The notes under the pieces: model-generated
The model's database searches: none
What the model saw: the letters and a program-made list of their open reading frames with translations, nothing else
What the model was told of the DNA's origin: nothing
Part shown: positions 1,299-22,563 of the stretch, one piece after another
Layout of the letters: every line of letters begins with the position of its first letter
Position numbering within the stretch: position 1 is the first letter of the stretch
Program-made: the position numbers and the translations under genes
DNA from: Aureimonas sp. Leaf324
GTDB lineage: Bacteria > Pseudomonadota > Alphaproteobacteria > Rhizobiales > Rhizobiaceae
Direction: 5' to 3'
Assembly: GCF_001423245.1 (NCBI RefSeq)
Contig: NZ_LMOH01000012.1
Location: forward strand, 188,518-252,517
Length of the DNA stretch: 64,000 nt

Positions 1299-1312
1299 TT
1301 GATCGCGATCAA
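1299..1312. promoter_or_regulatory. FNR/FixK-type box TTGATCGCGATCAA
   Basis: A perfect TTGAT-N4-ATCAA palindrome centred about 75 bases upstream of the SPW-repeat gene (start 1230). It also overlaps the stop codon of the host-attachment-like gene that ends at 1309. It matches the consensus bound by FNR, FixK and Anr regulators. Confidence 0.88.
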
Positions 1313-1794
1313 GCGTCGGTCGAGCTGCCGTCTTCCGCAGCGCCGACGTCTCGAAGCGATGCACCATCCCGACGCGTCAGGATGAACAGGAAGGTCGACG
1401 TGCCGGGGATGCGATGGGTGCGGCGGTCTTCTGCATCGCCGGCGCCACCATCGGCGGAACGGTTTGTCGGCTCGCCGGTCCGCCGACGGGTCACGCCGTC
1501 CCGGACGGCCCGGACCAGCGGAATGTCGCGCCGATCCGCAATCATGACGATGCCCGGGACGAGGTGCCTGCGCGACAGTCGCCGCAAGGTCGAGCTGACC
1601 TCGTCCGTGAAAACCTTCGCTTGACCATCATGGTGCTCGCCGGGGGCATCCGCATGGATGATCGCCTCGGTCTCGAGGACGAGTTGAGCCAGGCTTCCGT
1701 GATTGCGCAGGACCTCGGCCTTCCGGCGATCGAGGACGAGCAACAGGGCGTCGTGCGGGAGGACGAGATCACGAAGCATCGCCCGAACCGCCAT
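1309..1794 (-). CDS. Host-attachment-family-like protein with divergent C-terminus
   Basis: Residues 6-100 resemble the better-preserved family member at 3952-4404: both start with an xLPHxAL or IPHGAL strand, then DRRKAEVLRN or DHRKALLLRN, and later a GIVMIADRRDI or GMVIVATPHLL strand. This is the host-attachment (Host_attach/baeRF-like) fold of small, mostly uncharacterised proteins. After about residue 105 the similarity stops and the sequence becomes low-complexity (RRTGEPTNRSADGGAG), where the family would normally have the last helices. That suggests an old frameshift or C-terminal decay. ATG 1794 overlaps the DUF779 gene by 26 bases; ATG 1779 is an alternative that aligns better with the paralogue. 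It is probably cotranscribed from the box at 3913. Confidence 0.6.
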   Translation of the reverse strand: MAVRAMLRDLVLPHDALLLVLDRRKAEVLRNHGSLAQLVLETEAIIHADAPGEHHDGQAKVFTDEVSSTLRRLSRRHLVPGIVMIADRRDIPLVRAVRDGVTRRRTGEPTNRSADGGAGDAEDRRTHRIPGTSTFLFILTRRDGASLRDVGAAEDGSSTDA

Positions 1795-2212
1795 CGTGGC
1801 CGCGGGATCCCGCCCGGCCGTTCGTCTCGGCGCCGACGGCGACGTCGTCGACCGTCCGACGTGTCGGAGCTGCCCCTCTCGGCCGGGCTCTTGTCGTCGA
1901 CCGGGCCGTGAAGCGCTGCCCGTCGGCAGCCTCGAGCGAGAAGCTGTCGCCTCCGCCGTCGGTCACGTCGATGGTGAGCAGCGTATCGGCAAGATAGTCG
2001 AATTGCGCCGACGCGACATAGAACGGGGTCCCGTCGATGTCGTCGAGCCAGACGTCGAGAGGACCGACGAGGAAGTCTCGGGCGCGGAAGCACATCGGCG
2101 CCGTACCCTCGCAGCACCCGCCGGAAAGGTGGAAGATCAGTGGCCCGAAACGCTCGCGGAGGGTCTTTGCCAAGGCGAGCGCCCTGGGCGTGAACTCGAC
2201 ATGCGTCGGCAT
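1769..2212 (-). CDS. DUF779-family protein, partner of the aldehyde dehydrogenase
   Basis: The first ~110 residues are a recognisable DUF779 domain: LSGGCCEGTAPMCF near the N-terminus, then FYVASAQFDYLADTLLTIDV and an FSLEAADGQRFTARS end. DUF779 proteins of unknown function are habitually encoded beside acetaldehyde dehydrogenases, as here: the ALDH gene ends 36 bases upstream on the same strand. The paired cysteines after GG look like a metal- or redox-active site, but no role is established. Beyond residue 110 there is an arginine/alanine-rich tail of about 38 residues not typical of the family, overlapping the next gene. The family usually ends near this point, so the tail may reflect a lost stop codon. 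Confidence 0.8.
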   Translation of the reverse strand: MPTHVEFTPRALALAKTLRERFGPLIFHLSGGCCEGTAPMCFRARDFLVGPLDVWLDDIDGTPFYVASAQFDYLADTLLTIDVTDGGGDSFSLEAADGQRFTARSTTRARPRGAAPTRRTVDDVAVGAETNGRAGSRGHDGGSGDAS

Positions 2213-2248
2213 GATGCGTCCTCCTCCCTGCGCCCGCCGCGACGTCGG

Positions 2249-3769
2249 TCAGAAGAGCCCGAGCGCGTTCAGGCTGTAGCTGACCAGAAGGTTCTTGGTC
2301 TGGCGGTAGTGGTGCATCGCCATGCGATGCGTCTCGCGCCCGAAGCCGGATTGCTTGTACCCGCCGAAGGCCGCGTGCGCCGGATAGGCGTGGTAGCAGT
2401 TGGTCCAGACGCGTCCGGCCCGGATGCCGCGGCCGACGTGGTAGAGATCGTTGGCGTTGCGCGCCCAGACGCCGGCGCCCCGCCCGTAGATCGTGTCGTT
2501 ACCAATGCGGATCGCGTCGTCCCGGTCCTTGAACGTCGTCACGGACACGACCGGTCCGAAAATCTCCTCTTGAAAGATCCGCATGCGGTTCTCGCCGGAG
2601 AAGACGGTCGGCTCGACGAAGTAGCCGTCGTTCAGCGGCCCGCCGAGCCGCGCACGCTCTCCGCCGGTGAGACACTTCGCACCCTCTTGCCGGCCGACGT
2701 CGATGTAGCCGAGGATCTTCTCCATCTGGCCCTTCGAGCACTGTGCGCCCATTTGGGTCGTCGGATCCAGCGGATCGCCGACCTTGATCCGGGCGACCCG
2801 GTCGACCGCCCGTTCCATGAACCTGTCGAAGATCGACTCCTGAACCAACGCCCGCGACGGGCAGGTGCAGACCTCGCCCTTGTTGAAGGTGAACAAGGCA
2901 AAGCCTTCCAGCGCCTTGTCGAGGAAGGCGTCGTCCTCGTCCATGACGTCGGCGAAGAAGATGTTGGGCGACTTGCCGCCGAGCTCCATCGTCTGCGGGA
3001 TGATCGTCTCGGCCGCGAACTGCATGATCTGCCGGCCGGTCGTCGTCTCGCCCGTGAAGGCGACCTTGGCGATGCGCGGACTGCGGGCGAGTGGCGCGCC
3101 GACCTCGGATCCATGGCCGAACACGACGTTCAGGACGCCCGGCGGCAGAACGTCGCCGACGAGGTCCATCAGGACGGCGAGGCTCATCGGCGTGTCGGAG
3201 GCCGGCTTGATGACGACGCAATTGCCGCAGGCAAGCGCCGGAGCGAGCTTCCACGCCGCCATGAGCAACGGGAAGTTCCAGGGAATGATCTGAGCAACCA
3301 CGCCGAGCGGCTCGTTGAAGTGATAGGCGACCGTATCGGCATCGATCTCGCCGATGGTCCCCTCCTCTGCCCTGACGCATCCCGCGAGGTAGCGGAAATG
3401 GTCGGCCGCCAGCGGAACGTCGGCATGAAGGGTCTCGCGGATCGGCTTGCCGTTGTCTCGCGTCTCGACGTCCGCCAGCAGCGGGATGTTCGCCTCGATC
3501 CGATCCGCGACGAGATTGAGGAGCCGTGCGCGTTCGGCGGCTGGCGTCCGGCTCCAGTCGGGAAACGCCCGATGCGCGGCGTCCAGGGCTGTCTCGACGT
3601 CGTCGGCGTCGGATCGCGCGACTTCGCACAGAGCAGCTCCGTCGATCGGACTGCGGTCGGTGAAGTAGCGTCCCTTGGCCGGCGGGGTCCACGATCCGCC
3701 GATGAAGTTCTCGTAGCGCGTCCGTCGGATGGCGGAAGACGTCGTGGCGGGTTTGGGCTTGTCGAGCAT
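2249..3769 (-). CDS. NAD-dependent aldehyde dehydrogenase (acetaldehyde/AldB-ExaC type)
   Basis: At 506 aa it is full length for the class. It begins [19 protein letters not shown], contains [19 protein letters not shown], the glutamate-bearing MELGGKSPN motif, and the catalytic cysteine in GEVCTCPSR; the CTC pattern is typical of the AldB/ExaC acetaldehyde dehydrogenases. The C-terminal part has [10 protein letters not shown] and [12 protein letters not shown]. It oxidises acetaldehyde or other short aldehydes to acids with NAD(P)+. The start at 3769 follows a GGAG site. It heads an operon with DUF779 and a host-attachment-like gene, under a perfect FNR box at 3913-3926 about 150 bases upstream. 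The three zinc alcohol dehydrogenases nearby would feed it aldehydes or remove them. Confidence 0.93.
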
Positions 3770-3912
3770 GTTCGCAGCTCCACCGTCTCTGGCTACCCCG
3801 GCTGCCGCTCCGACGGTTCGAGGCCAGTTGCCGCCCTTCGCCTTCGAGCGGCCCGAGACCGCCCGGTATCGGGCCAGGAATCGCAGGATCGGTGGAAGCG
3901 CCTCGACGTGAC

Positions 3913-3926
3913 TTGATCGCGATCAA
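3913..3926. promoter_or_regulatory. FNR/FixK-type box TTGATCGCGATCAA
   Basis: A perfect palindrome, identical base for base to the one at 1299-1312. It lies between the aldehyde dehydrogenase (start 3769, about 150 bases away) and the stop of the host-attachment gene at 3952. It is the likely activator site for the ALDH-DUF779 operon. Confidence 0.87.
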
Positions 3927-3951
3927 GGATCGCTCCGGTTCCGGAGGACGG

Positions 3952-4404
3952 CTACTCCGTCAGCCTGGCGGCGATGTCCCTGATGGGGAGATGCACGAGA
4001 TCGCGAGCAACCTCGGCGATCACGATCCGTCGGAGGTGCGGATCGAGGCGATCACGGATTTCGCCCAGAAGATGCGGTGTCGCGACGATCACCATGCCTT
4101 CGATACGATCCGTCTTCACGACGTCCCGCAGGACCTCGATGAGGTGGCGGGCAAAGCGCGCGCGGGCCTCACTCCGCATGTTCGCGTCCCGGTAATCGCG
4201 AACCAGGGTTCGGCTGCTCTTGTTGAAGCGGCCGAAGGTGACTTCCGACCCTTGGGAGCTTTCACTGTCCGGGAGTTCGACCGTGCGACACTTCCGAAGA
4301 GCCGGTCGCATGACCTCCCCTTCGTTGCGCAGGAGGAGCGCCTTGCGGTGGTCGGCCACCACCACGAGCGCTCCATGCGGAATGCGCAGACCCTGGCTCG
4401 GCAT
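3952..4404 (-). CDS. Host-attachment-family (baeRF-like) protein
   Basis: This 150-aa protein starts RIPHGALVVVADHRKALLLRNEG, has a polar middle that includes SRTLVRDYRD, a RARFARHLIEVLRDVV helix, a GMVIVATPHLLGEIRDRL strand-helix, and ends VARDLVHLPIRDIAARL. This is the layout of the Host_attach family, originally named from an Agrobacterium protein implicated in plant attachment; the fold is related to release-factor-like domains and its biochemical role is unclear. A strong GAGGAGG site precedes ATG 4404. The FNR-type box at 4456-4469 is centred 58 bases upstream and is shared with the divergent alcohol dehydrogenase. Confidence 0.82.
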   Translation of the reverse strand: MPSQGLRIPHGALVVVADHRKALLLRNEGEVMRPALRKCRTVELPDSESSQGSEVTFGRFNKSSRTLVRDYRDANMRSEARARFARHLIEVLRDVVKTDRIEGMVIVATPHLLGEIRDRLDPHLRRIVIAEVARDLVHLPIRDIAARLTE

Positions 4405-4455: not shown

Positions 4456-4469
4456 TTGATCCAGATCAC
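4456..4469. promoter_or_regulatory. FNR/FixK-type box TTGATCCAGATCAC (one mismatch)
   Basis: It has nine of ten consensus half-site bases. It lies in the divergent region between the host-attachment gene (start 4404, 58 bases) and the zinc alcohol dehydrogenase (start 4558, 95 bases), so it could serve both. Confidence 0.75.
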
Positions 4470-5541: not shown

Positions 5542-5553
5542 CGCGTCCGCCCT

Positions 5554-5567
5554 TTGCGTTCGATCAA
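5554..5567. promoter_or_regulatory. FNR/FixK-type box TTGCGTTCGATCAA (half-degenerate)
   Basis: One perfect ATCAA half and one TTGCG half with the correct four-base spacing, centred about 80 bases before the alcohol dehydrogenase at 5641. The same TTGCG variant occurs at 10431-10444. Confidence 0.65.
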
Positions 5568-5640: not shown

Positions 5641-6711
5641 ATGTCGAAGACGATGCGTGCCGCGATCGTGGAAGCGTTCGGAGAGCCGCTGGCGATCCGT
5701 TCCGTCCCGATCCCCCATCCCGGCCCGGACGAAGTGCTCGTGCGCGTGATGGCCTGCGGCGTGTGCCACACCGATCTGCACGCGGCGGACGGCGACTGGC
5801 CGGTCAAGCCGCGGCCGCCTTTCGTCCCCGGACATGAAGTCGCCGGTGTCGTTTCCGACCTCGGGGCCGCCGTCGAGGATCTGCGCGTTGGGGATCGGGT
5901 GGGCGTCGCGTGGCTGCACGACGCTTGCCTCAGATGCGAGTATTGCGAAACCGGCTGGGAGACGCTGTGCGAGCATCAGCACAACACGGGCTACAGTTGC
6001 GATGGCGGCTTCGCCGAATACGTGATCGCCAGGAAGGATTTCGTGGCGCGGCTTCCCGAGAAGCTGGACTTCGCGCAGGCGGCTCCGATCCTTTGTGCCG
6101 GCGTCACCACCTATAAGGGTCTGAAGGAGACGGAAGCTCGACCGGGACAGTGCGTCGCCATCTCCGGAGTGGGCGGGCTCGGCCACGTCGCGATCCAGTA
6201 TGCCAAGGCGATGGGCCTGAAGGTCGCGGCGATCGACGTCGCGCCCGACAAGCTCGTCCTTGCCAGGAAGGCCGGTGCGGATTTCACGGTCGACGCGCGC
6301 GATGCCGACGCCTCCGAGCGCATCATCGCCGCCACGGGCGGTGGAGCCCACGGCGTGCTCGTCACGGCGGTATCGCCACCCGCCTTCGCCGCCGCCCTGC
6401 GGATCGTTCGGCGCAAGGGAACCGTCGTGCTCGTCGGTCTGCCGCCGGGCGACTTCCCGACGCCCATCTTCGACGTGGTCCTGAAGCGCATCACCATCCG
6501 AGGCTCCATCGTCGGCACGCGCCGGGATCTGGAGGAGGCACTGGCCTTCGCAGCGGACGGGAAGGTCGAGGCGGAGATCCACAAGCGTCCACTGGACGAC
6601 ATCAACCAGGTGTTCTCCGATCTGCGCGCCGGTCGCGTCACGGGGCGCGTCGTCCTCGACCTCGCTTCGGCCCTGCAACCGGCGGCGATGCGCGAACACG
6701 CGTTCGCCTGA
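5641..6711 (+). CDS. Zinc-dependent alcohol dehydrogenase (AdhP/AdhA type)
   Basis: At 356 aa it has the standard AdhP layout: catalytic zinc ligands in CGVCHTDLH and GHEVAG, structural-zinc cysteines in CLRCEYCETGWETLC, the YSCDGGFAEY segment, and the nucleotide-binding GVGGLGHVAIQYAKAMG. It interconverts primary alcohols such as ethanol with aldehydes using NAD(H). ATG 5641 is preceded by GGAGACAAGAG; the longer upstream reading frame has no ribosome site. The K+ channel gene starts 21 bases after its stop and is probably cotranscribed. An FNR-type box lies at 5554-5567. In low oxygen the enzyme could recycle NADH, but the direction is inference. Confidence 0.92.
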   Translation: MSKTMRAAIVEAFGEPLAIRSVPIPHPGPDEVLVRVMACGVCHTDLHAADGDWPVKPRPPFVPGHEVAGVVSDLGAAVEDLRVGDRVGVAWLHDACLRCEYCETGWETLCEHQHNTGYSCDGGFAEYVIARKDFVARLPEKLDFAQAAPILCAGVTTYKGLKETEARPGQCVAISGVGGLGHVAIQYAKAMGLKVAAIDVAPDKLVLARKAGADFTVDARDADASERIIAATGGGAHGVLVTAVSPPAFAAALRIVRRKGTVVLVGLPPGDFPTPIFDVVLKRITIRGSIVGTRRDLEEALAFAADGKVEAEIHKRPLDDINQVFSDLRAGRVTGRVVLDLASALQPAAMREHAFA

Positions 6712-6732: not shown

Positions 6733-7164
6733 ATGGCGGTCGACCTGTGGATCGGCACCGCCATGATCGCGGCCAGCGTCTGCATTCACACGCTCGGCCT
6801 CATCGCCCTGACGCGCGTGCTGTCCCGGCTGATCGCCTGGCTCCGGCTGCACCAGGGTTGGGGTCGCACCGTCGCGATGATGTTCGCCGTCCTCGGCCTC
6901 TTCGCCATTCTCACGGTCGAGATCTGGGGCTGGGCAGGCTGCTATGTCGTTCTGGGCGTCGTGCCCGACATCGAGACCGCCCTCTACTTCTCGACCACGA
7001 CCTTCTCCACCGTCGGCTTCGGGGACATCGTGCCGGGCCAGCGATGGCGCATCCTGGCCGCGCTCGAGGGCGTGGACGGCTTTCTGCTCATCGGCTGGTC
7101 GACGGCCTATCTCGTCTCCGCCGGCACGCGCATCGGGCCGTTCCGGATCGGCGAGCATTTCTGA
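6733..7164 (+). CDS. Small potassium channel (ion-channel 2 family)
   Basis: This 143-aa membrane protein has hydrophobic helices at about 8-29, 48-68 and 107-128. Between the last two lies a pore loop whose filter reads TTTFSTVGFGDIVPG (residues 88-102). TVGFGD is the K+ selectivity filter signature. There is no RCK/TrkA-N domain and no voltage-sensor helix, so it is a minimal pore subunit likely to work as a tetramer. It sits 21 bases behind the alcohol dehydrogenase with a CGAGGAGG ribosome site, so it is likely in the same FNR-controlled transcript. Its role in the island might be in membrane potential or pH control during oxygen limitation; this is inference. Confidence 0.85.
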   Translation: MAVDLWIGTAMIAASVCIHTLGLIALTRVLSRLIAWLRLHQGWGRTVAMMFAVLGLFAILTVEIWGWAGCYVVLGVVPDIETALYFSTTTFSTVGFGDIVPGQRWRILAALEGVDGFLLIGWSTAYLVSAGTRIGPFRIGEHF

Positions 7165-7182: not shown

Positions 7183-7196
7183 TTGAGGCAGATCAA
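7183..7196. promoter_or_regulatory. FNR/FixK-type box TTGAGGCAGATCAA (one mismatch)
   Basis: TTGAG-N4-ATCAA centred about 84 bases before the universal stress gene at 7274. The same TTGAG left half occurs in the box at 22550-22563. Confidence 0.78.
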
Positions 7197-10430: not shown

Positions 10431-10444
10431 TTGCGGAAGATCAA
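10431..10444. promoter_or_regulatory. FNR/FixK-type box TTGCGGAAGATCAA (half-degenerate)
   Basis: TTGCG-N4-ATCAA centred about 68 bases upstream of the P-type ATPase start at 10369, closer than the perfect box at 10497. It shares the TTGCG left half with the box at 5554. Confidence 0.6.
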
Positions 10445-10496: not shown

Positions 10497-10510
10497 TTGA
10501 TCCGGATCAA
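10497..10510. promoter_or_regulatory. FNR/FixK-type box TTGATCCGGATCAA
   Basis: A perfect, fully symmetric palindrome in the divergent region between the P-type ATPase (start 10369) and the phasin-like gene (start 10610, about 106 bases). Confidence 0.87.
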
Positions 10511-11047: not shown

Positions 11048-11905
11048 ATGAGCGCGTCGAGCATCGCCGATCCGAGTTTCGGCCTCGTGCCCCGCAATAT
11101 CCTCGTCAGCGTGGACCTCGATCTCGACATGGACGGGCGCCTCAAGCTCGTCGCGGATCTCGCGGACCGGTTTTCCTGCCACGTGATCGGAGCGGCCGCC
11201 CGGGAGGTCGTCATGCCCGTCATGACCGAGGCGGACGTGATCGTTCAGACGGACCTCCTCGAGGAGGAACGGCGGATCGTGCAGCGCGATCTGGACGACG
11301 CGGAAGCCGTCTTCCGGCGCACCTTCGATCGATCCACCAGCGCGACATGGTGTTCGGCCACCGAAAGGGCCTCCTACTGGATCTGCGAGCAGGCCCGCTC
11401 CGCAGATCTCGTCGTCTGCGGCGCTCGTCTCGGGGAAGGCACCCTCGGAGGCGCGCTTCGCGTCGATCCCGGACATGTTCTCCTCGGCCTCGGCCGCCCG
11501 TTGCTGGTGGTCCCGCCGCGAACCGACATGCTGGCGGCCAGACGGATCGTGATCGGATGGAAGAACTCCCGTGAGGCCAGACGCGCCATCCTCGACGCCC
11601 TTCCCTTCCTGATGCGTTCGGAGAACGTCCTCGTGGTCTGCGCAGGCCAATATCCCGACATCGACGGCGCGAAAGCCGTCGCCGAGCATCTGCGTCGTTA
11701 CGGCATCCACTGCGAGGGCGTCGCGGATACGCCGTCCTCCAACCACAGCGTAGCGGAAGATCTCCGCAATGCCGTGACCCGTTCCGGTTCGGACCTTCTG
11801 GTCTGCGGGGCCTATGGACATACCCGGCTCAGGGAATGGGTCTTCGGCGGCGTGACCACCGACCTTCTCGACGACACGCGGTCGGTCTGTCTGTTCTCGC
11901 ATTGA
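11048..11905 (+). CDS. Universal stress protein (tandem UspA domains)
   Basis: This 285-aa protein has a first Usp half beginning PRNILVSVDLDLDMDGRLKL and a second half RRIVIGWKNSREARRAI ending GAYGHTRLREWVFGGVTTDLL. The second-half ATP-binding tail is conserved; the first half is diverged in its glycines. It is probably in one transcript with the phasin-like gene and shares its perfect FNR box at 10497. It is similar in length and layout to the Usp proteins at 7274 and 12007. Confidence 0.88.
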   Translation: MSASSIADPSFGLVPRNILVSVDLDLDMDGRLKLVADLADRFSCHVIGAAAREVVMPVMTEADVIVQTDLLEEERRIVQRDLDDAEAVFRRTFDRSTSATWCSATERASYWICEQARSADLVVCGARLGEGTLGGALRVDPGHVLLGLGRPLLVVPPRTDMLAARRIVIGWKNSREARRAILDALPFLMRSENVLVVCAGQYPDIDGAKAVAEHLRRYGIHCEGVADTPSSNHSVAEDLRNAVTRSGSDLLVCGAYGHTRLREWVFGGVTTDLLDDTRSVCLFSH

Positions 11906-11934: not shown

Positions 11935-11948
11935 TTGATTGGCGTCAA
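11935..11948. promoter_or_regulatory. FNR/FixK-type box TTGATTGGCGTCAA (one mismatch)
   Basis: TTGAT-N4-GTCAA centred about 65 bases before the GTG start of the third universal stress gene. The GTCAA right half is shared with the box at 17037. Confidence 0.75.
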
Positions 11949-12964: not shown

Positions 12965-13549
12965 ATGAGGAAGCATGTCGCCTTGATCCAGGGGCATCCG
13001 GACGTCTCGCCCGATCGCCTGTGCCGAGCCCTCGCCGACGCCTATATCGACGGCGCCAGAACGTCGGGGCATATCGTCGAGGAGATCGACGTGGCCCGCC
13101 TCGATTTCCCGCTGCTGCGCCGACAGAAGGAGTTCGAGGATGGCGCGATGCCGGCCGCCCTCGACAAGGCTGCCGAGGCCATTCGGGAAGCCGAGCACGT
13201 CGTCTTCGTCTTCCCCCTGTGGCTCGGCACCATGCCGGCGCTTCTGAAGGCCTTTCTCGAACAGGTCATGCGTCCGGGCTTCGCGTTCGACTACGATGGC
13301 GGCGGATTTCCCAAGAAGCTTCTGAAGGGTCGATCGGCTCGGATCATCGTCACGATGGGTATGCCGTCGTCCGTTTACCGCTGGGTCTATCTCGATCACT
13401 GGCTGGCAGGACTGCGGCGCAGCATCCTCGGCTTCGTCGGTCTTTCGCCGGTGCGCGAGACCCTGTTCGGCCGGGTCAACGACGTGCCCCCGGAAGTGCG
13501 CCGCCAGTGGCTGACGACGATGGCCGGGTTGGGCCGGCAGGCGCGATGA
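12965..13549 (+). CDS. NAD(P)H-dependent flavodoxin-fold oxidoreductase (quinone reductase/KefF-like)
   Basis: At 194 aa it is a Flavodoxin_2 protein: an N-terminal beta strand and phosphate loop (VALIQGHPDVSPDRLCRALAD), VVFVFPLWLGTMPALLKAFLEQVMRPGFAF for FMN and active-site contacts, and IIVTMGMPSSVYRW. Such FMN enzymes reduce quinones two electrons at a time or serve as regulatory subunits of K+ efflux systems. A GAAGGAGCG site precedes ATG 12965. It follows the Usp gene closely and the acetyltransferase comes 92 bases later. A redox role in the low-oxygen programme is inference. Confidence 0.85.
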   Translation: MRKHVALIQGHPDVSPDRLCRALADAYIDGARTSGHIVEEIDVARLDFPLLRRQKEFEDGAMPAALDKAAEAIREAEHVVFVFPLWLGTMPALLKAFLEQVMRPGFAFDYDGGGFPKKLLKGRSARIIVTMGMPSSVYRWVYLDHWLAGLRRSILGFVGLSPVRETLFGRVNDVPPEVRRQWLTTMAGLGRQAR

Positions 13550-13641
13550 CGCAGTCTTTTCGCCACGGACCGATCCGGTCCGAGCGAAGCCTCACGGGTT
13601 CGAACCATCCTGACGAGCGCGAAGACAGGAGCCACATCACG

Positions 13642-14221: not shown

Positions 14222-15628
14222 TCATTCGTCCAGCGGCAGGGTCGCGACGTCTTCTTCCTGTCCCCGCCGGACCGCGATGACGATCGCCGGGCGCGCCGCA
14301 GCCGCCGCTTCGTCGACGATCTGCGAAAGACGCGCGGTGTTCGCGACGGGCAGCTGATTGATCGACACGATGAGATCGCCCGGAACGATGCCGATGCTCT
14401 CGGCCGACCCGCCGGTCACGACGTCGGTCACCTCCACTCCGGTGGGAGAATCTTCGATCGAAAGGCCGAAGCGGGTCAATTCCAGCGCATCGCGGTTGCC
14501 TACGCCCGAGGGCGACGCCTGGTCGTCGGACTGCGCGACCGTGACGGAGAGCCGCAGACGACGGCCGGCTCGAAGAACTTCGACCGGCACCACGGTATCG
14601 GGCGCCCGAGCTGCGATGTGTCGCGCCAATTCCCTCGCATTGGCGACCGTCGAGCCATCGAGGGAGACGAGAACGTCGGAAGCCCTCAAGCCTGCCTTCG
14701 AGGCTGGCGAGTCCCGTCCGACACCGAGAACGAGCGCGCCCTCCGATCGTTCGAGGCCGAGGGCATCGCGCACCTCGTCGGAGACATCCGAGATCCGGAT
14801 TCCGATGTGGCCGTAACGGGGCGGCTTGCCGCGCAGGATCGCGTCTATGACCTTTCTTGCGTCATCCGACGGGATGGCAAAGCCGACCCCCGCGCTGACG
14901 CCTGTGGGGCTGTAGATGGCGGTGTCGATTCCAACGACCCGTCCGTCCCCGTCGATGATAGGCCCACCCGAATCTCCGCTATTCAAGGCGGCATCGATCT
15001 GGATGAAGTCGTCGAGCGGTCCCATGCCGAGATCGCGATCGAGGGCCGACACCATTCCCAGGGAGGTCGCGATTCCGAGGCCGAAGGTGTTGCCGAAGAC
15101 CAGGACCTCGTCGCCGATGCGCAGCGCCTCCGACTTCCCCCATTCGACATGGGGCAGTGGCGGGACCGGGTCGATGCGCAGGACCGCGACGTCGCGGACC
15201 GCGTCGGACCCCACCAGCTCCGCGGACATCGATCTGCCGTCGGCTGTCCGGATCGTGATGCGCTCCGCCTGGTGGACGACGTGCTCGCTCGTGACCACGG
15301 CGCCGTCCTTCGTCAGGATGAAGCCGGTGCCGATCGACGTTCCCGTATCGTCCTCCATGGGTTGCGTGAGGCTCGAAAGCCTGCGGCGGTCGGAGCTGCC
15401 AGCTGCGATCGAGCGAACGCCGTCGAGCGCGTCGGCCGGGGGCGTTCGTGCCGTGACGCCTTCGGCGACCACCGTCACGATGGCCGGCAGCAAGGTCGCG
15501 ACGACGTCGGACCGCGAGCGAGACGTCACATCGGCATATGCCGCAACGGGCGTGCTCGCTGCCACCACGAGGGAGGCCAGCCCCGCAACCAGAAAGGGAG
15601 ACACCGGGGGCCGGCGCGGACGTCGCAT
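14222..15628 (-). CDS. HtrA/Deg-family periplasmic serine protease with two PDZ domains
   Basis: From ATG 15628 it is 468 aa. An N-terminal basic and hydrophobic segment ending ...TPVAAYA looks like a cleavable signal peptide. The trypsin-like domain carries the triad His116 (TSEHVV), Asp146 (RDVAVL) and Ser220 in NSGDSGGPI. GDSGG is the trypsin wording, where most Deg proteins have GNSGG. Two PDZ domains follow at about 285-370 and 385-460. It degrades or refolds damaged envelope proteins. Its gene follows Hsp20 on the same strand with 86 bases between, so transcription from the BON-Hsp20 unit is possible. Confidence 0.9.
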   Translation of the reverse strand: MRRPRRPPVSPFLVAGLASLVVAASTPVAAYADVTSRSRSDVVATLLPAIVTVVAEGVTARTPPADALDGVRSIAAGSSDRRRLSSLTQPMEDDTGTSIGTGFILTKDGAVVTSEHVVHQAERITIRTADGRSMSAELVGSDAVRDVAVLRIDPVPPLPHVEWGKSEALRIGDEVLVFGNTFGLGIATSLGMVSALDRDLGMGPLDDFIQIDAALNSGDSGGPIIDGDGRVVGIDTAIYSPTGVSAGVGFAIPSDDARKVIDAILRGKPPRYGHIGIRISDVSDEVRDALGLERSEGALVLGVGRDSPASKAGLRASDVLVSLDGSTVANARELARHIAARAPDTVVPVEVLRAGRRLRLSVTVAQSDDQASPSGVGNRDALELTRFGLSIEDSPTGVEVTDVVTGGSAESIGIVPGDLIVSINQLPVANTARLSQIVDEAAAAARPAIVIAVRRGQEEDVATLPLDE

Positions 15629-15714
15629 GGGGTTCGGTCCCTGTCGAAGTGGGCGAAGCCGACACCTGCCCTTGGGAGCCGGCGGTGCAGGATCGTGCAC
15701 TGCCGGCTCACGTC

Positions 15715-16254
15715 TCACGCGGCCTTCACCTCGATCTTCTTCTCCGAGGCCAGAGCTTCCGGCGTCTTCGGCAGACGGACGGTCAGGACGCCTTTTGCGA
15801 AATCTGCCGAGATCCTGTCCTGGTCGATCCCCGTCGGCAGCGCGAAGCTCCGCGAGAAGCTGCCGTAGTGTCGCTCGGCGAAGTGGAAGTCCTTGCGGTG
15901 TTCCTGCCGCTCGTCCCGCTTCTCGCCGGACAGGGTCAGCATGCCGTTCGCGATCTTGACCTCGATGTCGTTCCGGTCGAGTCCCGGCAACTCCGCGCTG
16001 ACCTCGTATTCGGTCGCACGTTCGACGACATCGACGGCGGGCTGGCCGAACGAGAAGAGATCGTCGAGCGGAAACGACAGATCGAGATCCGGGCCCATCC
16101 TGAGCCGGGATACCTCCGAGCGCCCGTTCGACAGTCTTTCGAACAGTCGGTCGATCTCCTGCCGGACCATCTGAATCGGATGCCAGTCGGCGCGACGTTG
16201 ACTGACGGGAGGCTTGTCCGCTTTCTGAATCGGGAGACTGGATGTGTTGTCCAT
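15715..16254 (-). CDS. Hsp20/alpha-crystallin small heat-shock protein
   Basis: A 179-aa protein with an N-terminal region rich in Phe and Leu (PLDDLFSFGQPAVDVVE) and an alpha-crystallin domain from about 72 to 165, including YEVSAELPGLDRNDIEVKI, GMLTLSGEKRDE and GVLTVRLPK. Small heat-shock proteins hold unfolding proteins without ATP, which suits energy-starved cells. GAGGAGC precedes ATG 16254. No heat-shock ROSE-type leader is evident. It lies 61 bases downstream of the BON gene, separated by a GC-rich hairpin (16278-16297), and no FNR box of its own is seen. Confidence 0.93.
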   Translation of the reverse strand: MDNTSSLPIQKADKPPVSQRRADWHPIQMVRQEIDRLFERLSNGRSEVSRLRMGPDLDLSFPLDDLFSFGQPAVDVVERATEYEVSAELPGLDRNDIEVKIANGMLTLSGEKRDERQEHRKDFHFAERHYGSFSRSFALPTGIDQDRISADFAKGVLTVRLPKTPEALASEKKIEVKAA

Positions 16255-17036: not shown

Positions 17037-17050
17037 TTGATGCGCGTCAA
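17037..17050. promoter_or_regulatory. FNR/FixK-type box TTGATGCGCGTCAA (one mismatch)
   Basis: TTGAT-N4-GTCAA centred about 78 bases upstream of the BON gene and overlapping the last codons of the zeta-like gene (stop at 17047-17049). Confidence 0.76.
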
Positions 17051-17484: not shown

Positions 17485-17498
17485 TTGATGCAGATCAA
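17485..17498. promoter_or_regulatory. FNR/FixK-type box TTGATGCAGATCAA
   Basis: A perfect palindrome in its half-sites, centred about 88 bases upstream of the zeta-like inhibitor gene (start 17403). It lies between that start and the stop of the unknown gene at 17560. Confidence 0.87.
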
Positions 17499-17997: not shown

Positions 17998-18011
17998 TTG
18001 ATGTCCATCAA
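17998..18011. promoter_or_regulatory. FNR/FixK-type box TTGATGTCCATCAA
   Basis: Perfect half-sites in the divergent promoter region between the unknown gene (start 17946, 58 bases) and the HAD-ATPase fusion (start 18094, 89 bases). Confidence 0.86.
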
Positions 18012-18093: not shown

Positions 18094-19797
18094 ATGTTCT
18101 TTCTCGCTCTGGCCGTCGATTTCGACGGCACGCTCGCAAGCGAAGGCCTCGTCGCTGCCGAAACATTCGCGGCTCTGCGGCGTCTGCGCGAGAGCGGGAG
18201 GCGGGTCGTGCTGGTCACCGGCCGTGAACTGCGGGATCTTTGCACCCACCTGTCCGACCTTTCGATCTTCGATCGGGTCGTCGCCGAGAACGGCGGTGTT
18301 CTTCTCGATCCTGCGAACGGACGCAGGACCATCCTCGGCGCCCCTCCGCCAGCCGAGTTCGTCGAGCGTCTGCGGCGGCGCGGCGTCGATAGGATTTCGG
18401 TCGGAGAGGTCGTCGTGGCCACTTGGGAGCCCGCCGAGCAGGTCGCTCTCGAGGTGATCCGCACGATGGGACTGGAACTGCAGGTCGTCTTCAACAAGGG
18501 CGCGGTGATGATCCTGCCGACAGGCATCGGCAAGGCGTCGGGCCTGCAGGCGGCTCTCCACTCGTTGTCGCTCTCCCCCCACAACGTCGCGGCCGTCGGC
18601 GACGCGGAAAACGATCACGCGCTTCTTCGGGCTTCCGGGTGCGGGGCTGCCGTTGCGAACGCGACGGAAAGCTTGGCTCTACAGGCCGATCTGCGCCTCC
18701 GGGGCCGCAATGGTGCCGGAGTGGTCGAATTGGTGGATCGGCTTCTCGCAGAGGACCATGCCCTCGTTCCGCCCGGCCGGCACGGCATCGCCCTGGGGAA
18801 AGACCCAAATGGGCGGGAGATCCTCATCCAGCCCTTCGGCGAGAGCCTGCTGATTTTCGGATCCTCGGGCTGCGGGAAATCGACATTCGCCACCGCGTTG
18901 GCGGAAACCTTTGCGGCACGCCGTTACGAGTTCTGCGTGATCGATCCGGAGGGCGACTACGTCGATCTCGAGGAAGCCGTGTCGATCGGCACGCTTCACA
19001 CCCCCCCGCCGATGCGCGAAGCGCTGCGGCTTCTGCAGGACGACTCGGTGAATCTCGTTCTGGATACGCAGGCCCTCACGCTCGCCGAGCGAAGAGCGAC
19101 GTGCGCGCCAGTGCTTCAGCACCTGGCGGATCTTCGCGCGTCGACGGGACGACCACACTGGCTGCTCGTCGACGAGGCGCACCAGTTGTTCTCCGAAACG
19201 GGCACCCCGATGCCGACCCCGCCGCCTGCGATGATCGCGCTGACGGCATACCCGGAAAGCCTGTCGCTGGACGCGCTGCACCGGTTCGACGCCGTCGTCG
19301 CCCTCGGCGTCGACGCCGTCGATCGTCTGTCCGTCATCGGACACCGCTTGGGCCGCTCTTCCATCTTCGAGAACGCGGGCGCGTCGGCGGGAGATGCGTT
19401 TTTCTGGCGGCCCCGATCGGACCTCGCGCCCGTGCCGTTCGAGCGAATCCGTCCCGTCCAGGACCACAAGAGGCACCAGGGAAAATACGCGAAGGGCGAT
19501 GTGGGCTGGGAACACAGTTTCTGGTTCCGGGGACCCGTCAACGCCCTCAACACACCGGCGCGCAACCTCTATCATTTCGTCGATCTGGCCATCGAGATGG
19601 ACGATGCGGTGTGGGAGCATCATCTCCGGGCCGGCGACTATTCGGCATGGTTCCGGCGGGTGATCGGCGACGAGGATCTCGCTCGCGAGGCCGAACGGAT
19701 CGAACGGGACCCGGCTGTCCCGCCGCAGCAGAGCCGTCAGCGCATCCGCAAGGCGATCTGGCGTCGATATGCGGCCCCGGCCGGCGACGCCGGTTGA
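18094..19797 (+). CDS. HAD phosphatase fused to a HerA/DUF87-like P-loop ATPase
   Basis: This 567-aa protein has three parts. Residues 1-220 form a Cof-type HAD hydrolase: VDFDGTL with the nucleophile Asp9, TGR at 42-44, a GIGKASGL lysine motif, and GDAENDHALL (169-178). Residues 230-430 are a P-loop ATPase with Walker A GSSGCGKST (256-264) and Walker B WLLVDEAHQ (357-365), of the HerA/DUF87 type that reads an IDPEGDY motif (284-290). The last ~130 residues contain ARNLYHFVDLAIEMDD and DYSAWFRRVIGDEDLA, resembling a small helical DUF5752-like module. ATG 18094 follows GGGAG. The frame upstream to 17191 is antisense shadow. The function is unknown; sugar-phosphate or nucleotide sensing coupled to ATP hydrolysis is speculation. 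Confidence 0.85.
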   Translation: MFFLALAVDFDGTLASEGLVAAETFAALRRLRESGRRVVLVTGRELRDLCTHLSDLSIFDRVVAENGGVLLDPANGRRTILGAPPPAEFVERLRRRGVDRISVGEVVVATWEPAEQVALEVIRTMGLELQVVFNKGAVMILPTGIGKASGLQAALHSLSLSPHNVAAVGDAENDHALLRASGCGAAVANATESLALQADLRLRGRNGAGVVELVDRLLAEDHALVPPGRHGIALGKDPNGREILIQPFGESLLIFGSSGCGKSTFATALAETFAARRYEFCVIDPEGDYVDLEEAVSIGTLHTPPPMREALRLLQDDSVNLVLDTQALTLAERRATCAPVLQHLADLRASTGRPHWLLVDEAHQLFSETGTPMPTPPPAMIALTAYPESLSLDALHRFDAVVALGVDAVDRLSVIGHRLGRSSIFENAGASAGDAFFWRPRSDLAPVPFERIRPVQDHKRHQGKYAKGDVGWEHSFWFRGPVNALNTPARNLYHFVDLAIEMDDAVWEHHLRAGDYSAWFRRVIGDEDLAREAERIERDPAVPPQQSRQRIRKAIWRRYAAPAGDAG

Positions 19798-19851: not shown

Positions 19852-19865
19852 TTGATGCCGATCAA
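19852..19865. promoter_or_regulatory. FNR/FixK-type box TTGATGCCGATCAA
   Basis: Perfect half-sites, centred about 78 bases before the alcohol dehydrogenase gene at 19937. Confidence 0.87.
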
Positions 19866-19936
19866 CGGTTTTGCCTGTCCCTTCTCCAATATGCGCCTTT
19901 CCGCCCGCAAGGACGCGCAAGAAGGGAGACCATGCC

Positions 19937-21010
19937 ATGAGCACCATGAAAGCCGCGATCTTCATCGAGAAGAACAGGATCGTGCTCGGAGAGAAACCGA
20001 TCCCCGACGTCGGCCCCTCGGACGCCCTCGTGCGGATCACCACCACGACGATCTGCGGGACGGACGTCCACATCCTCAAGGGCGAATACCCCGTCGCCTC
20101 CGGTCTGACGATCGGGCATGAACCCGTCGGCGTGATCGAAAAGCTGGGACGCGAGGTGAAAAGCTTTCGTGAGGGCCAGCGCGTGATCGCCGGGGCCATC
20201 ACGCCCGGGTTCACGAGCAACGCATGCCAATGCGGCTTCTGTTCGCAGGACGGGGCGGGCACGGCGCACGGCTGGAAGCCGTTGGGCGGATGGCGCTTCG
20301 GCAACACGATCGACGGGTGCCAGGCCGACTACGTCCTCGTCCCGGATGCGGAAGGCAACCTCGCCCTCATCCCGGACGGGCTGACGGACGAGCAGGTGCT
20401 GATGTGTCCCGACATCATGTCGACGGGGTTCGGCGGCGCCGAACGCGGCGACATCAGGATCGGGGACGTCGTCGCCGTCTTCGCGCAAGGCCCGATCGGC
20501 CTGTGCGCCGCCGTCGGCGCACGTCTCTTGGGCGCCTCCGTCGTCATCGGTGTCGACCGCCTCGAAACGCGTCTGGCCGTATCGCAGAGACTGGGGACCG
20601 ACATCGTCGTCGATGCGTCCAAGGTCGATGCCGTGAGCGAGATCATGAAGCTGACCGGTGGGCGAGGTGTCGATGTCGCGATCGAAGCACTCGGCACCCA
20701 GACGACCTTCGCGCAGGCGCTGCGGGTTCTTCGCCCAGGCGGGACCTTGTCCAGTCTCGGCGTCTATTCCGAGGATCTTTCCATCCCCCACGATGCCTTC
20801 GCCGCCGGGCTTGGAGACCACCGGATCGTCACCACGCTCTGCCCCGGCGGAAAGGAACGGATGCGTCGTCTCATGCAGACGGTCCAGAGTGGCCGCGTCG
20901 ATCTCGGCGCTCTCGTGACCCACCGCTTCCCGTTGGTGCGGATCGAGGATGCGTACGATCTCTTCTCGCACCAGCGGGACGGGGTCCTGAAGGTCGCGCT
21001 CAAGCCGTGA
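19937..21010 (+). CDS. NAD(P)-dependent zinc alcohol dehydrogenase (secondary-ADH/Tdh-like type)
   Basis: This 357-aa MDR enzyme has catalytic-zinc residues in TICGTDVH and IGHEPVG. Instead of the usual four-cysteine structural zinc loop it has ITPGFTSNACQCGFCSQDG, the loop seen in the isopropanol-dehydrogenase-like group, followed by GWRFGNTIDGCQADY. The cofactor site is GPIGLCAAVGARLLGA followed by an acidic strand end (VDR), consistent with NAD+. It differs clearly from the two ADHs at 4558 and 5641. ATG 19937 follows GAAGGGAGACC. A perfect FNR box is at 19852. The Fnr gene begins 156 bases after it. Confidence 0.9.
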   Translation: MSTMKAAIFIEKNRIVLGEKPIPDVGPSDALVRITTTTICGTDVHILKGEYPVASGLTIGHEPVGVIEKLGREVKSFREGQRVIAGAITPGFTSNACQCGFCSQDGAGTAHGWKPLGGWRFGNTIDGCQADYVLVPDAEGNLALIPDGLTDEQVLMCPDIMSTGFGGAERGDIRIGDVVAVFAQGPIGLCAAVGARLLGASVVIGVDRLETRLAVSQRLGTDIVVDASKVDAVSEIMKLTGGRGVDVAIEALGTQTTFAQALRVLRPGGTLSSLGVYSEDLSIPHDAFAAGLGDHRIVTTLCPGGKERMRRLMQTVQSGRVDLGALVTHRFPLVRIEDAYDLFSHQRDGVLKVALKP

Positions 21011-21166
21011 TAGGCCGCGATCCGCACACGTGCCCGTCGGTCGTACGTGCGCAACCAAGGGTTAAACCCTACATGACGGTTCCGTGACCTGGGATTACTG
21101 ATTTAGGTTGTTGGCGCGATCTCGCATTTCGCCCGTGTCGCTCGATCCATCGAAGGGAGGACGACG

Positions 21167-21934
21167 ATGCAACCTGCATTGAAACTTTCACTGGATCGGT
21201 CCGGACCCATTCCGTCCCCCTGCCTCGGATGCCCTGTTCGCCGGGACGGCATCTGCCGTGTTCTCGGAAACGACGAATTGGGTCGGCTGGCCCTCGTGTC
21301 CGTGCGTCGCGTCGTGCCACGCCACGAAGCGGTCTGGCGCGCCGGCGACGGGTCCGGCTCCGTGGCGAGCCTCCTCAGCGGTGTTGTCAGTCTATCCCGC
21401 AGCCTGCCGGATGGTCGGCAGCAGATCGTGGCCCTGCAATTCCCGACCAGCGTGATCGGTTCGCTGGCCGGCGGGAGGGAGCTGGAGACCGTCGCGCAGG
21501 AGACGACGCGAATCTGCTCGGTCCCGCGTGGACACTTCGAAAACATCCTTTCGCGCAATCCCGAGCTGGAGCGAGAGGTCATACGGCAGATCGGAGCCCA
21601 GCTGGACGAGGCCAGGAACTGGCTGGTGGCCATCGGTCGCAAGTCGGCCGCCGAGCGGGTCGCGACCTACCTGCACATGCTGGTCACGAACCACCGCTCG
21701 CCCCAGCGTGACGCCGGACCGGTCGAGATCCTTCTGCCGCTGTCTCGCGGCGCCACGGCCGACTTTCTGGGCCTCACCATCGAGACGGTCTCGCGGAAGA
21801 TGACGGAACTGAAGAGGTCAGGCATCGTCGACTTCGACGATGCGACCCGCATGCACGTGCTCTCGACCGACAGGTTGCGGGCGGCGACAGGCGATGAACC
21901 CGTCTTGGATCAACCCGGATCGCTTCGAAACTAG
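21167..21934 (+). CDS. Crp/Fnr-family oxygen-sensing transcriptional regulator (FNR type)
   Basis: This 255-aa protein has cysteines 19, 22 and 30 (CLGCPVRRDGIC, C-x2-C-x7-C) and Cys117 (RICSVP), the four ligands expected for an oxygen-labile [4Fe-4S] cluster in FnrL/FnrN proteins. The effector beta-barrel spans about 40-130, the dimer helix 130-160, and the helix-turn-helix 193-220 reads GATADFLGLTIETVSRKM. Glu206, Ser209 and Arg210 match the FNR residues that read TTGAT. It is therefore the obvious regulator of the boxes in this island. A GAAGGGAGG site precedes ATG 21167. No TTGAT box is seen in its own 156-base upstream region, so it may be constitutive or under other control. Confidence 0.93.
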   Translation: MQPALKLSLDRSGPIPSPCLGCPVRRDGICRVLGNDELGRLALVSVRRVVPRHEAVWRAGDGSGSVASLLSGVVSLSRSLPDGRQQIVALQFPTSVIGSLAGGRELETVAQETTRICSVPRGHFENILSRNPELEREVIRQIGAQLDEARNWLVAIGRKSAAERVATYLHMLVTNHRSPQRDAGPVEILLPLSRGATADFLGLTIETVSRKMTELKRSGIVDFDDATRMHVLSTDRLRAATGDEPVLDQPGSLRN

Positions 21935-21948
21935 ACGGGCCGGACACG

Positions 21949-22473
21949 TCAAAGCACCGTCTGGTAGGCCCATGTCAGGGCATCGAGATCGCGATCGGAA
22001 AGGATGGCAACGGCGAGAGGAAGAACGATTTCCGACTCGTAGGTCGCATGGCGACGCACGCTCCGAAACAACGCCCGGGTCTGATACGCGACCGCGTCGA
22101 TTGTCCTTGCACTGTCCCTGGCAGACAGCGACCGCAGTTCCTCCGACAAGTCTCCGACGGCATCCTGATCCTCGCCATGTTCGTGCACCAGACGCTGCAG
22201 ATCGATCCGTAACGGAGCCGCCTTCCAGAGACGGCGCTCGAGAAGGGGGAAGATTCGCTCTTCCTCGAGCTCATGGTGGACCCGGAGGCGGCTTCCAAAC
22301 GATGTGACGAGGGTGCGGCAGTGCATCGGGTCTTCGGAAGGCAGCCTATCCGCCATCGACTCGAGATCGGCACACATGCCGAGCTGTTCCGCATGATAGG
22401 ATACCAGCAGATCGAGCCGCAAAACCTCATCACCCCGGTGCGGTCCGCGGCGCCGATTCTTTGTCCAGGTCAT
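21949..22473 (-). CDS. Hemerythrin HHE-domain protein
   Basis: A 174-aa helical protein with the diiron ligand pattern: VSYHAEQLGM, later VHHELEEERIFPLLERRL, then VHEHGEDQDAV, and RRHATYESEIVLPLA. Hemerythrin domains bind O2 or NO or store iron. In rhizobial P1B-5 ATPases a hemerythrin is fused to the pump, whereas here the two are separate genes in the same regulon. ATG 22473 has AGGA upstream; the longer frame to 22980 is not supported. An FNR-type box at 22550-22563 lies 83 bases upstream. The gene converges with the Fnr gene, with 14 bases between stops. Confidence 0.88.
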   Translation of the reverse strand: MTWTKNRRRGPHRGDEVLRLDLLVSYHAEQLGMCADLESMADRLPSEDPMHCRTLVTSFGSRLRVHHELEEERIFPLLERRLWKAAPLRIDLQRLVHEHGEDQDAVGDLSEELRSLSARDSARTIDAVAYQTRALFRSVRRHATYESEIVLPLAVAILSDRDLDALTWAYQTVL

Positions 22474-22549
22474 GTCGTGTCGTCCTTTTGAGGCAACCTG
22501 TCCCTTCAGAAGCCCGGCGGGGAGTCTGTAGCTGGCTTGCAACCCGGCT

Positions 22550-22563
22550 TTGAGCTTGATCAA
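22550..22563. promoter_or_regulatory. FNR/FixK-type box TTGAGCTTGATCAA (one mismatch)
   Basis: TTGAG-N4-ATCAA centred about 83 bases upstream of the hemerythrin gene (start 22473). It is the last box of the island. Confidence 0.76.

What the first reader, a model, noticed from the sequence alone, without database searches (positions are those of the whole stretch)
1299..22563. A 13-box FNR/FixK regulon island resembling a low-oxygen dormancy programme
At 1299, 3913, 4456, 5554, 7183, 10431, 10497, 11935, 17037, 17485, 17998, 19852 and 22550 there are 14-base palindromes of the TTGAT-N4-ATCAA class. Six have perfect half-sites (1299, 3913, 10497, 17485, 17998, 19852). All lie about 58-150 bases upstream of start codons and none were seen in the remaining 41 kb. 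They serve Usp proteins, BON, zeta-like inhibitor, hemerythrin, SPW, ALDH, ADHs and unknowns. Gene content parallels the DosR dormancy regulon of mycobacteria but is under a different, Fnr-type regulator, also encoded here.
Basis: partly seen in the sequence, partly recalled or inferred. Interest (0 to 1): 0.92.

Follow-up and report, generated by a model that had tools for sequence, protein, structure and literature searches.

The report
Clustered FNR-controlled low-oxygen survival island
A 31-41 kb stretch of this bacterial chromosome packs nine of the genome's ten perfect oxygen-switch (FNR-type) DNA sites in front of stress-survival genes, together with the likely switch protein; it is a well-supported new example of a kind of low-oxygen gene cluster already known in rhizobia and Burkholderia.

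Summary
All 13 boxes are at the stated coordinates. The 4.4-Mb genome has only 10 perfect TTGAT-N4-ATCAA sites, and 9 lie in this one island, whose boxes begin about 9 kb before the window. Of 30 TTGA-N6-TCAA sites, 14 lie in the same 31 kb. Boxes sit 51-143 nt before the likeliest starts. A -10-like signal peaks exactly 22 nt after the island boxes, the spacing of activator sites at -41.5, and shows no peak at 15 non-island boxes. By FNR and BON searches, one of 20 congeners has the island, in shuffled order; 8 gene-box pairs are kept. The FNR at 21167 has the four cysteines of oxygen-sensing FnrN/FnrL proteins and ETVSR in its recognition helix. Most likely this is an accessory low-oxygen regulon run by its own Fe-S FNR. 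The kind is known: predicted FixK/FNR core regulons (Dufour 2010), the Burkholderia lxa locus, a similar region on S. meliloti pSymA. The DosR likeness is analogy only and already drawn for lxa. Oxygen dependence and dormancy are untested.

The parts
1299..1312 (.). perfect FNR box, 68 nt before SPW-domain gene (874-1230 -)
   Evidence: box kept before the SPW gene in G020
3913..3926 (.). perfect FNR box, 143 nt before aldehyde dehydrogenase (2249-3769 -)
4456..4469 (.). 1-mismatch FNR box between divergent baeRF/host-attach-like gene (-) and ADH1 (+)
   Evidence: box kept before ADH1 in G020
5554..5567 (.). 2-mismatch FNR-like box (TTGCG..ATCAA), 73 nt before ADH2
   Evidence: also a TTGCG-type 2-mismatch box before ADH2 in G020
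7183..7196 (.). TTGA-N6-TCAA box, 77 nt before Usp1
   Evidence: 2-mismatch box before Usp1 in G020
10431..10444 (.). 2-mismatch FNR-like box, 61 nt before P-type ATPase
10497..10510 (.). perfect FNR box between divergent P-type ATPase (-) and small ORF 10610-10981 (+)
   Evidence: box kept upstream of the ATPase unit in G020
11935..11948 (.). TTGA-N6-TCAA box before Usp3
17037..17050 (.). TTGA-N6-TCAA box, 70 nt before BON gene
   Evidence: kept in G020
17485..17498 (.). perfect FNR box, 81 nt before ATPase-inhibitor zeta gene
   Evidence: a TTGAN6TCAA box stands there in G020
17998..18011 (.). perfect FNR box between divergent ORF 17560-17946 (-) and HAD-ATPase (+)
19852..19865 (.). perfect FNR box, 71 nt before ADH3, with the FNR gene next downstream on the same strand
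22550..22563 (.). TTGA-N6-TCAA box, 76 nt before hemerythrin gene
21167..21934 (+). FNR regulator, C-x2-C-x7-C (C19, C22, C30) plus C117, recognition helix ETVSR; FnrN/FnrL type
   Evidence: Pfam; PDB FNR/FixK2 matches; NCBIfam FnrL best, below its cut-off; tree
874..1230 (-). SPW repeat membrane protein
   Evidence: PF03779
1309..1794 (-). baeRF/Host_attach-like protein (below Pfam cut-offs)
1769..2212 (-). DUF779 protein
   Evidence: PF05610
2249..3769 (-). aldehyde dehydrogenase, nearest ExaC acetaldehyde dehydrogenase (below the equivalog cut-off)
   Evidence: PF00171; NCBIfam
3952..4404 (-). baeRF family 12 / host-attachment-like protein
   Evidence: PF18856
4558..5541 (+). Zn alcohol dehydrogenase ADH1
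   Evidence: TIGR02822 above cut-off
5641..6711 (+). Zn alcohol dehydrogenase ADH2 (AdhP-like)
   Evidence: NF006940 above cut-off
6733..7164 (+). ion channel
   Evidence: PF07885
7274..8182 (+). universal stress protein Usp1
   Evidence: PF00582
8447..10369 (-). P-type ATPase
   Evidence: PF00122/PF00702
10610..10981 (+). small ORF without family match
11048..11905 (+). universal stress protein Usp2
   Evidence: PF00582
12007..12927 (+). universal stress protein Usp3 (start uncertain)
   Evidence: PF00582; start
12965..13549 (+). flavodoxin-fold NAD(P)H reductase
   Evidence: PF02525
13621..14175 (+). GNAT acetyltransferase (start uncertain)
   Evidence: PF00583, (searched within the longer frame 13021-14175)
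14222..15718 (-). trypsin-like protease with PDZ domains (start uncertain)
15715..16254 (-). Hsp20
   Evidence: PF00011
16316..16966 (-). three-BON-domain protein
   Evidence: PF04972
17047..17403 (-). ATPase inhibitor subunit zeta, one of three copies in the genome
   Evidence: PF07345
17560..17946 (-). ORF without family match; has relatives beside Usp/BON on the Bosea plasmid
18094..19797 (+). HAD-IIB hydrolase fused to HerA-like ATPase
19937..21010 (+). Zn alcohol dehydrogenase ADH3, 72% identical to a pSymA relative
21949..22473 (-). hemerythrin HHE protein
   Evidence: PF01814; start

Best explanation
The stretch is an accessory low-oxygen regulon island. When oxygen falls, the FNR encoded at 21167 (an FnrN/FnrL-type protein with four conserved cysteines, inferred to hold an oxygen-labile 4Fe-4S cluster) dimerises, binds the TTGAT-N4-ATCAA-type boxes (up to 17, of which 14 fit TTGAN6TCAA), centred near -41.5, and activates the genes behind them. 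Products: stress proteins (three Usp, BON, CBS; Hsp20 and a PDZ protease lie behind BON on the same strand), redox and fermentation enzymes (three ADH, ALDH, flavodoxin-like reductase; PTA and PhaC/SDR in the left extension), a P-type ATPase, hemerythrin, and an extra F1-ATPase inhibitor zeta that could stop ATP being burnt when respiration stops. Net effect proposed: survival of oxygen starvation in an otherwise aerobic cell. Shown here: boxes, clustering, promoter geometry, conserved gene-box pairs, regulator signature residues. Inferred: Fe-S cluster, oxygen response, activation, survival role.
For: 9 of 10 perfect sites and 14 of 30 TTGAN6TCAA sites of the genome in one island. A -10-like hexamer peak exactly 22 nt after the box in 21 gene-facing flanks of 17 boxes (z 6.6 against other offsets) and in 68 boxes of 13 loci of other genomes, both orientations (z 4.8, also peaking at 22); no peak at 15 of the 16 non-island TTGAN6TCAA sites of the same genome. 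In congener G020 the island genes are in another order, yet 8 units keep a box: ATPase, ADH1, SPW, CBS/MgtC, ADH2, Usp1, BON, zeta. Regulator: one search aligns it with A. fischeri FNR (fourth Cys and ETxSR match); one search shows the cysteines and ETVSR in it, its C16 paralogue and the G020 orthologue; one search puts it in a 43-row branch in which every row has the N-terminal cysteine motif. Gene content matches the published predicted FixK/FNR core regulons (Hsp20, CBS, Zn-ADH, HlyD/ABC, Usp, P-ATPase; PMC2908626 Table 1, passages). pSymA 595-644 kb has 12 such boxes and relatives of many of the genes.
Against: No expression data. The genome has other CRP/FNR proteins: a 61%-identical FNR paralogue on contig C16, and a cysteine-less one on C10 with REAVSR in the helix region and a perfect box just upstream of its gene; either could use the same boxes. 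Ion channel, Usp2, flavodoxin, GNAT, protease, Hsp20 and FNR itself have no box of their own and would have to be read through from a neighbour. -10 matches are weak at most single promoters, and the three sets are not alike: the island set uses gene-facing flanks only, the others both sides. Boxes 5554 and 10431 are 2-mismatch sites, a class also found in the rest of the window. Comparable gene clusters on Sphingomonas, Novosphingobium and Phenylobacterium plasmids have no perfect box and only 1-2 with one mismatch, so the gene set is not always tied to this box.
Confidence: 0.82

Rival explanations
1. The boxes are real but are served mainly by another CRP/FNR protein (C16 paralogue or the cysteine-less C10 protein); the 21167 protein is secondary.
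For: C16 paralogue shares cysteines and ETVSR; the C10 protein has a perfect box just upstream of its gene and REAVSR in its helix region. In the pSymA, Bradyrhizobium and Phenylobacterium clusters the linked CRP/FNR protein lacks the cysteine motif.
Against: The 21167 gene lies inside the island and its orthologue lies inside the island of G020. The C16 contig (17.7 kb) has no TTGAN6TCAA site.
Confidence: 0.25
2. General stress island: the two-component pair in the left extension (kinase C12:183830-185212 with a NarL-type response regulator beside it) is the main switch and FNR only modulates.
For: A HisKA_3 kinase with PAS and a NarL/DevR-class regulator are in the island here and in G020.
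Against: The kinase gene has a perfect FNR box 89 nt before its likeliest start, so it looks like a target. No NarL/DosR-type box set was looked for.
Confidence: 0.12
3. Chance clustering or a repeat artefact.
For: Short palindromes occur by chance; the reversed-pattern control of TTGAN6TCAA gives 14 sites genome-wide.
Against: GC here is 0.63-0.69; 0 of 100 shuffles reach the window count; the control of the full pattern gives 0 perfect sites genome-wide; spacers differ between most boxes; -10 geometry and conservation.
Confidence: 0.01

Closest known systems
[quoted passage not shown]
   Same: A large contiguous cluster with six Usp, Hsp20, BON protein, flavin/nitro reductase; induced at low oxygen, tied to anoxic persistence; an Anr/FixK homologue is proposed as regulator; compared with DosR in print (PMC6127331 and PMC9104464, passages).
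   Different: Beta-proteobacterium; its candidate regulator BCAM0049 has a locus number far outside the cluster. Gene-by-gene orthology with lxa itself was not tested (primary paper not held); a Paraburkholderia plasmid with relatives of CBS, SDR, ADH, two Usp, HK, RR and FNR, and 7 TTGAN6TCAA sites in 41 kb, was looked at (identities 25-39%).
Predicted FixK/FNR core regulons of alpha-proteobacteria (Dufour, Kiley, Donohue 2010)
   Same: Same box and the same classes of target: Hsp20, CBS, HlyD/ABC, Zn-ADH, Usp, P-type ATPase (PMC2908626 Table 1, passages).
   Different: Here the targets are packed into one accessory island, and no ccoN (cbb3 oxidase) was found in the genome.
Sinorhizobium meliloti pSymA 595-644 kb low-oxygen region
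   Same: 12 TTGAN6TCAA boxes; relatives of ADH3 (72%), P-ATPase (53%), flavodoxin (54%), BON (50%), MgtC/DUF4010, Hsp20, protease, GNAT, Usp.
   Different: The linked CRP/FNR protein has no cysteine motif. That the region is under FixJ/FixK at low oxygen is recalled, not tested.
DosR (DevR) dormancy regulon of mycobacteria
   Same: Similar classes of product (Usp, alpha-crystallin, CBS, P-type ATPase; recalled); DevR is one of the PDB matches of the island's response regulator, NarL being the best.
   Different: Different regulator class and boxes (DosR's recalled); no evidence of common descent of the regulon.

Membership tests
FNR/FnrN regulon (Fe-S type) | Regulator with cNMP-binding and Crp HTH domains | tested here: met
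   PF00027, PF13545, PF00325
FNR/FnrN regulon (Fe-S type) | Four cysteines for the Fe-S cluster | tested here: met
   C19, C22, C30, C117; present in the three clade members
FNR/FnrN regulon (Fe-S type) | TTGAT-N4-ATCAA boxes with class-II spacing to -10 | tested here: met
FNR/FnrN regulon (Fe-S type) | Oxygen-dependent control of the genes | not testable with these tools
   needs expression data
FixK regulon (FixLJ-FixK cascade) | Regulator without the cysteine cluster | tested here: not met
   the linked regulator has the cysteines and falls in a branch of Cys-bearing proteins; a FixK elsewhere in the genome is not excluded
lxa-type locus | Contiguous cluster of several Usp with Hsp20, BON, reductase | tested here: met
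   against the lxa list in PMC6127331 (passages)
lxa-type locus | Orthology with BCAM0275-0323 | not tested
   the locus itself was not fetched
lxa-type locus | Low-oxygen induction and role in anoxic persistence | not testable with these tools
   needs expression and survival data
DosR regulon | DosR-type boxes under a DosR regulator | not tested
   no DosR-box scan was made; the boxes found are FNR-type

The most novel reading that the evidence does not exclude
A self-contained, transferable oxygen regulon: a divergent FnrN subfamily (at 60% identity or more in 2 of 21 genomes of the genus; no other match above 44% in 397 genomes drawn from the order, six candidates scored per genome) travels with nearly all of its own boxes and targets, so that one acquisition gives an aerobe without detectable cbb3 oxidase a ready-made anoxia-survival programme, including an oxygen-regulated extra ATP-synthase brake (zeta). 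The left edge abuts TniB/TniQ-type transposition genes, and a sister genome 96% identical in the right flank carries a divergent Tni set with other cargo at the same place.
Probability: 0.35. Interest if true: 0.6.

Novelty: new member of a known kind. Interest (0 to 1): 0.42.

Why it matters
It gives a compact, testable oxygen regulon in which the sensor and nine of the genome's ten perfect sites lie together. This suits the study of how low-oxygen survival programmes are gained as a block, and whether an FNR-boxed zeta subunit switches ATP synthase off in anoxia. It also sets alpha-proteobacterial FixK/FNR clusters beside the Burkholderia lxa locus.

Tried and rejected
Chance clustering: rejected. 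DosR homology: kept only as analogy. The island as a standard fixNOQP/FnrN neighbourhood: rejected, no ccoN found in the genome (the control rang in 6 of 14 genomes, over the cut-off in 1); a cytochrome bd gene exists elsewhere (C12:795871). Transposon ends: between the left Tni region and the right border the inverted matches listed are 11-13 bases and the direct ones at most 19, so a Tn-borne island is not shown; G020's island has no Tni relatives in the 19 kb fetched on either side. FNR neighbourhoods in Devosia, M. loti and R. brockwellii show cyd, cbb3 or other contexts, not this island; the Aminobacter and Paraburkholderia sprentiae neighbourhoods of the HAD-ATPase do not show it either. 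Clusters of similar genes with few or no boxes: Sphingomonas, Phenylobacterium, Novosphingobium plasmids. Rows dropped: the ATGAT site C12:176395 was left out of the promoter count; the C10:1799 site was left out of the non-island set (15 of 16 used). Whether the 1-8 perfect sites of other congeners are clustered was not examined, G020 apart. Aligning the three zeta copies by tblastn failed; the other two were read from their loci.
Full report
The observation. Four of the five one-mismatch sites fit TTGA-N6-TCAA, the wider FixK/FnrN consensus ('anaerobox' TTGA-n6-TCAA in PMC11784457, passages). Up to two mismatches the window has 29 sites, where shuffles give 7.4; 18 are in the first 22.6 kb and 11 in the remaining 41 kb (ten of these with two mismatches, one with one).

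Whole genome. The window lies at C12:188518-252517 of a 4.415-Mb, 30-contig assembly. It holds 10 perfect sites (reversed-pattern control 0), 9 of them in C12:181073-208382, the tenth at C10:1799 just upstream of another CRP/FNR gene. Of 30 TTGAN6TCAA sites (control 14), 14 lie in C12:179723-211080. Twenty congeners have 0-8 perfect sites each; whether those are clustered was not examined, G020 apart.

Extent. The island reaches left of the window (L002): phosphoribosyltransferase, PTA, PhaC, SDR, HlyD/FtsX/ABC, SPW, CBS, NarL-type response regulator and HisKA_3/PAS kinase, MgtC/DUF4010, CBS, with boxes at C12:179723, 181073, 185224 and 188159 (FtsX, ABC and the second SPW named from sequence and context, not from a family search). 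The working span is about C12:170-211 kb, of which the window shows the right 22.5 kb.

Promoter geometry. For 17 boxes (21 gene-facing flanks) I scored each offset downstream of the box against TATAAT. The single highest offset is 22 nt (mean match 1.95 of 6; background 0.91, sd 0.16), i.e. a box centred at -41.5, the class-II activator position (recalled). In 68 TTGAN6TCAA boxes of 13 loci of other genomes, both orientations, the peak is also at 22 (1.76 against 1.24, sd 0.11). In 15 of the 16 non-island sites of the same genome, both orientations, there is no peak at 22 (1.23 against 1.19). All. The z-values compare offsets with each other and are not formal P values, and the sets differ in size and in the flanks used. 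Distances from box to the likeliest start are 51-143 nt; I chose the starts by frame and Shine-Dalgarno match, and those of Usp3, MgtC and the protease are uncertain.

Conservation. Of 21 genomes of the genus (own included), only G020 and the own genome have a full-length BON relative and an FNR relative of 60% or more; five others have only a 42-48% match over about 70 residues of BON. In G020 C2:130-155 kb, 21 of my 37 island query proteins find relatives (best query per place; a weak ABC match not counted), in a different order; ALDH, DUF779, the flavodoxin, the HAD-ATPase, PTA and PhaC were not among them. There, boxes stand before ATPase/ORF8192, ADH1, SPW, CBS-MgtC, ADH2, Usp1, BON and zeta, as they do here (those of ADH2 and Usp1 are 2-mismatch sites, and before ADH2 both genomes have TTGCG-N4-ATCAA). 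The 34 kb scanned there have 20 sites at 2 mismatches or fewer, some inside genes. Box-gene pairs thus survive rearrangement.

Regulator. The 21167 protein has C-x2-C-x7-C, a fourth cysteine at 117, and ETVSR in the recognition helix. In a 56-row tree it groups with its C16 paralogue and the G020 orthologue on a long stem inside a 43-row branch in which every row has the N-terminal cysteine motif. The other branch holds the cysteine-less proteins of the pSymA, Bradyrhizobium and Phenylobacterium clusters, but also ten motif-bearing proteins, nine of them from congeners; some long branches there are unsafe. NCBIfam's best is FnrL, below its cut-off. Tsoy et al. (PMC4999443, passages) use these cysteines to tell FnrN (direct oxygen sensing) from FixK. 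In 397 genomes drawn from the order, 120 have a match at E 1e-30 or better and none outside the own genome exceeds 44% identity (six candidates scored per genome). The gene follows ADH3 and may share its box-driven promoter.

Known kin. Dufour et al. (PMC2908626, passages) predicted FixK/FNR/DNR core regulons with Hsp20, CBS, phosphoketolase, HlyD/ABC, Zn-ADH, cytochrome c, Usp and P-type ATPase. pSymA 595-644 kb (12 boxes), a Bosea plasmid (8) and a Bradyrhizobium plasmid (11) hold comparable clusters. Against a fixed tie of genes and box: similar clusters on Sphingomonas, Phenylobacterium and Novosphingobium plasmids have no perfect box and one or two with one mismatch. The Burkholderia lxa locus is the experimentally described counterpart (PMC6127331, PMC9104464, passages), and the first of these already draws the DosR comparison. 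FnrN-dependent, anaerobox-driven Hsp20 is shown in R. leguminosarum (PMC11784457, passages). So the kind is known.

What is particular here. Nine of ten perfect sites of a genome without detectable ccoN lie in one accessory block with its own Fe-S-type FNR. And one of three zeta (F1-ATPase inhibitor) genes carries a perfect box here and a TTGAN6TCAA box in G020. Zeta is a potent inhibitor of the F-ATPase in free-living alpha-proteobacteria, but S. meliloti zeta does not inhibit its own enzyme (PMC10469736, passages), so a brake function is a hypothesis. In the rows listed by two searches (8 of 11 papers, 10 of 146) none held both the zeta/DUF1476 terms and FixK or FNR regulon; that is a partial look at a partial library.

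Mobility. TniB/TniQ genes and a weak TniA-like one (Mu-transposase C-terminal match just below its cut-off) end at C12:169.6 kb, next to the left edge; the gene before them has no Pfam match. Congener G002 is 96% identical over C12:211493-213905, the stretch compared, but to the left of that breakpoint it has other genes with a 42-46% identical Tni set. This makes the site a likely insertion hot spot, but transposon ends were not found and G020's island is elsewhere without Tni relatives within 19 kb. Horizontal gain is likely; the vehicle is unknown.

Organism. 

Verdict. Real, strongly supported as an FNR-type low-oxygen regulon island; ordinary in kind, notable in compactness. The oxygen response and dormancy claims remain to be tested.

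Noticed in passing
L001:13585-19586 (C12:163.6-169.6 kb), left of the window: TniB/TniQ genes, a weak TniA-like gene and a gene without Pfam match (possibly TnsA-like) abut the extended island; G002 has a divergent set with other cargo at the same chromosomal breakpoint.
   Followed up: partly
L001:214-7100: HipA-like kinase, ABC-3C system genes (MC2, CTD6) and Mrr-type nuclease: a defence-gene neighbourhood left of the Tni genes.
   Followed up: no
17047-17403 and G000 C1:498026, C2:97238: Three ATPase-inhibitor zeta genes in one genome, one of them behind a perfect FNR box.
   Followed up: partly
L120 (G000 C16, 17.7 kb contig), 5873-6613: A second FNR, about 60% identical to the island's, on a small contig without any TTGAN6TCAA site or other island relatives.
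   Followed up: partly
L003:952-1812 (G000 C10): A cysteine-less CRP/FNR gene with the genome's only perfect box outside the island, just upstream of it: possible autoregulation.
   Followed up: no
18094-19797: HAD-IIB phosphatase fused to a HerA-like ATPase, 42-48% identical over 99-100% of its length to translated stretches in 11 plasmid-collection records, among them Sinorhizobium, Aminobacter, Paraburkholderia, Nonomuraea and Synechococcus; function unknown.
   Followed up: no
L002:16317-17240: Two ORFs whose signal-peptide-like starts run into GNGNGNxGxGNGN repeats, between the kinase and MgtC genes; similar DNA in G020 L099:5404-6641.
   Followed up: no
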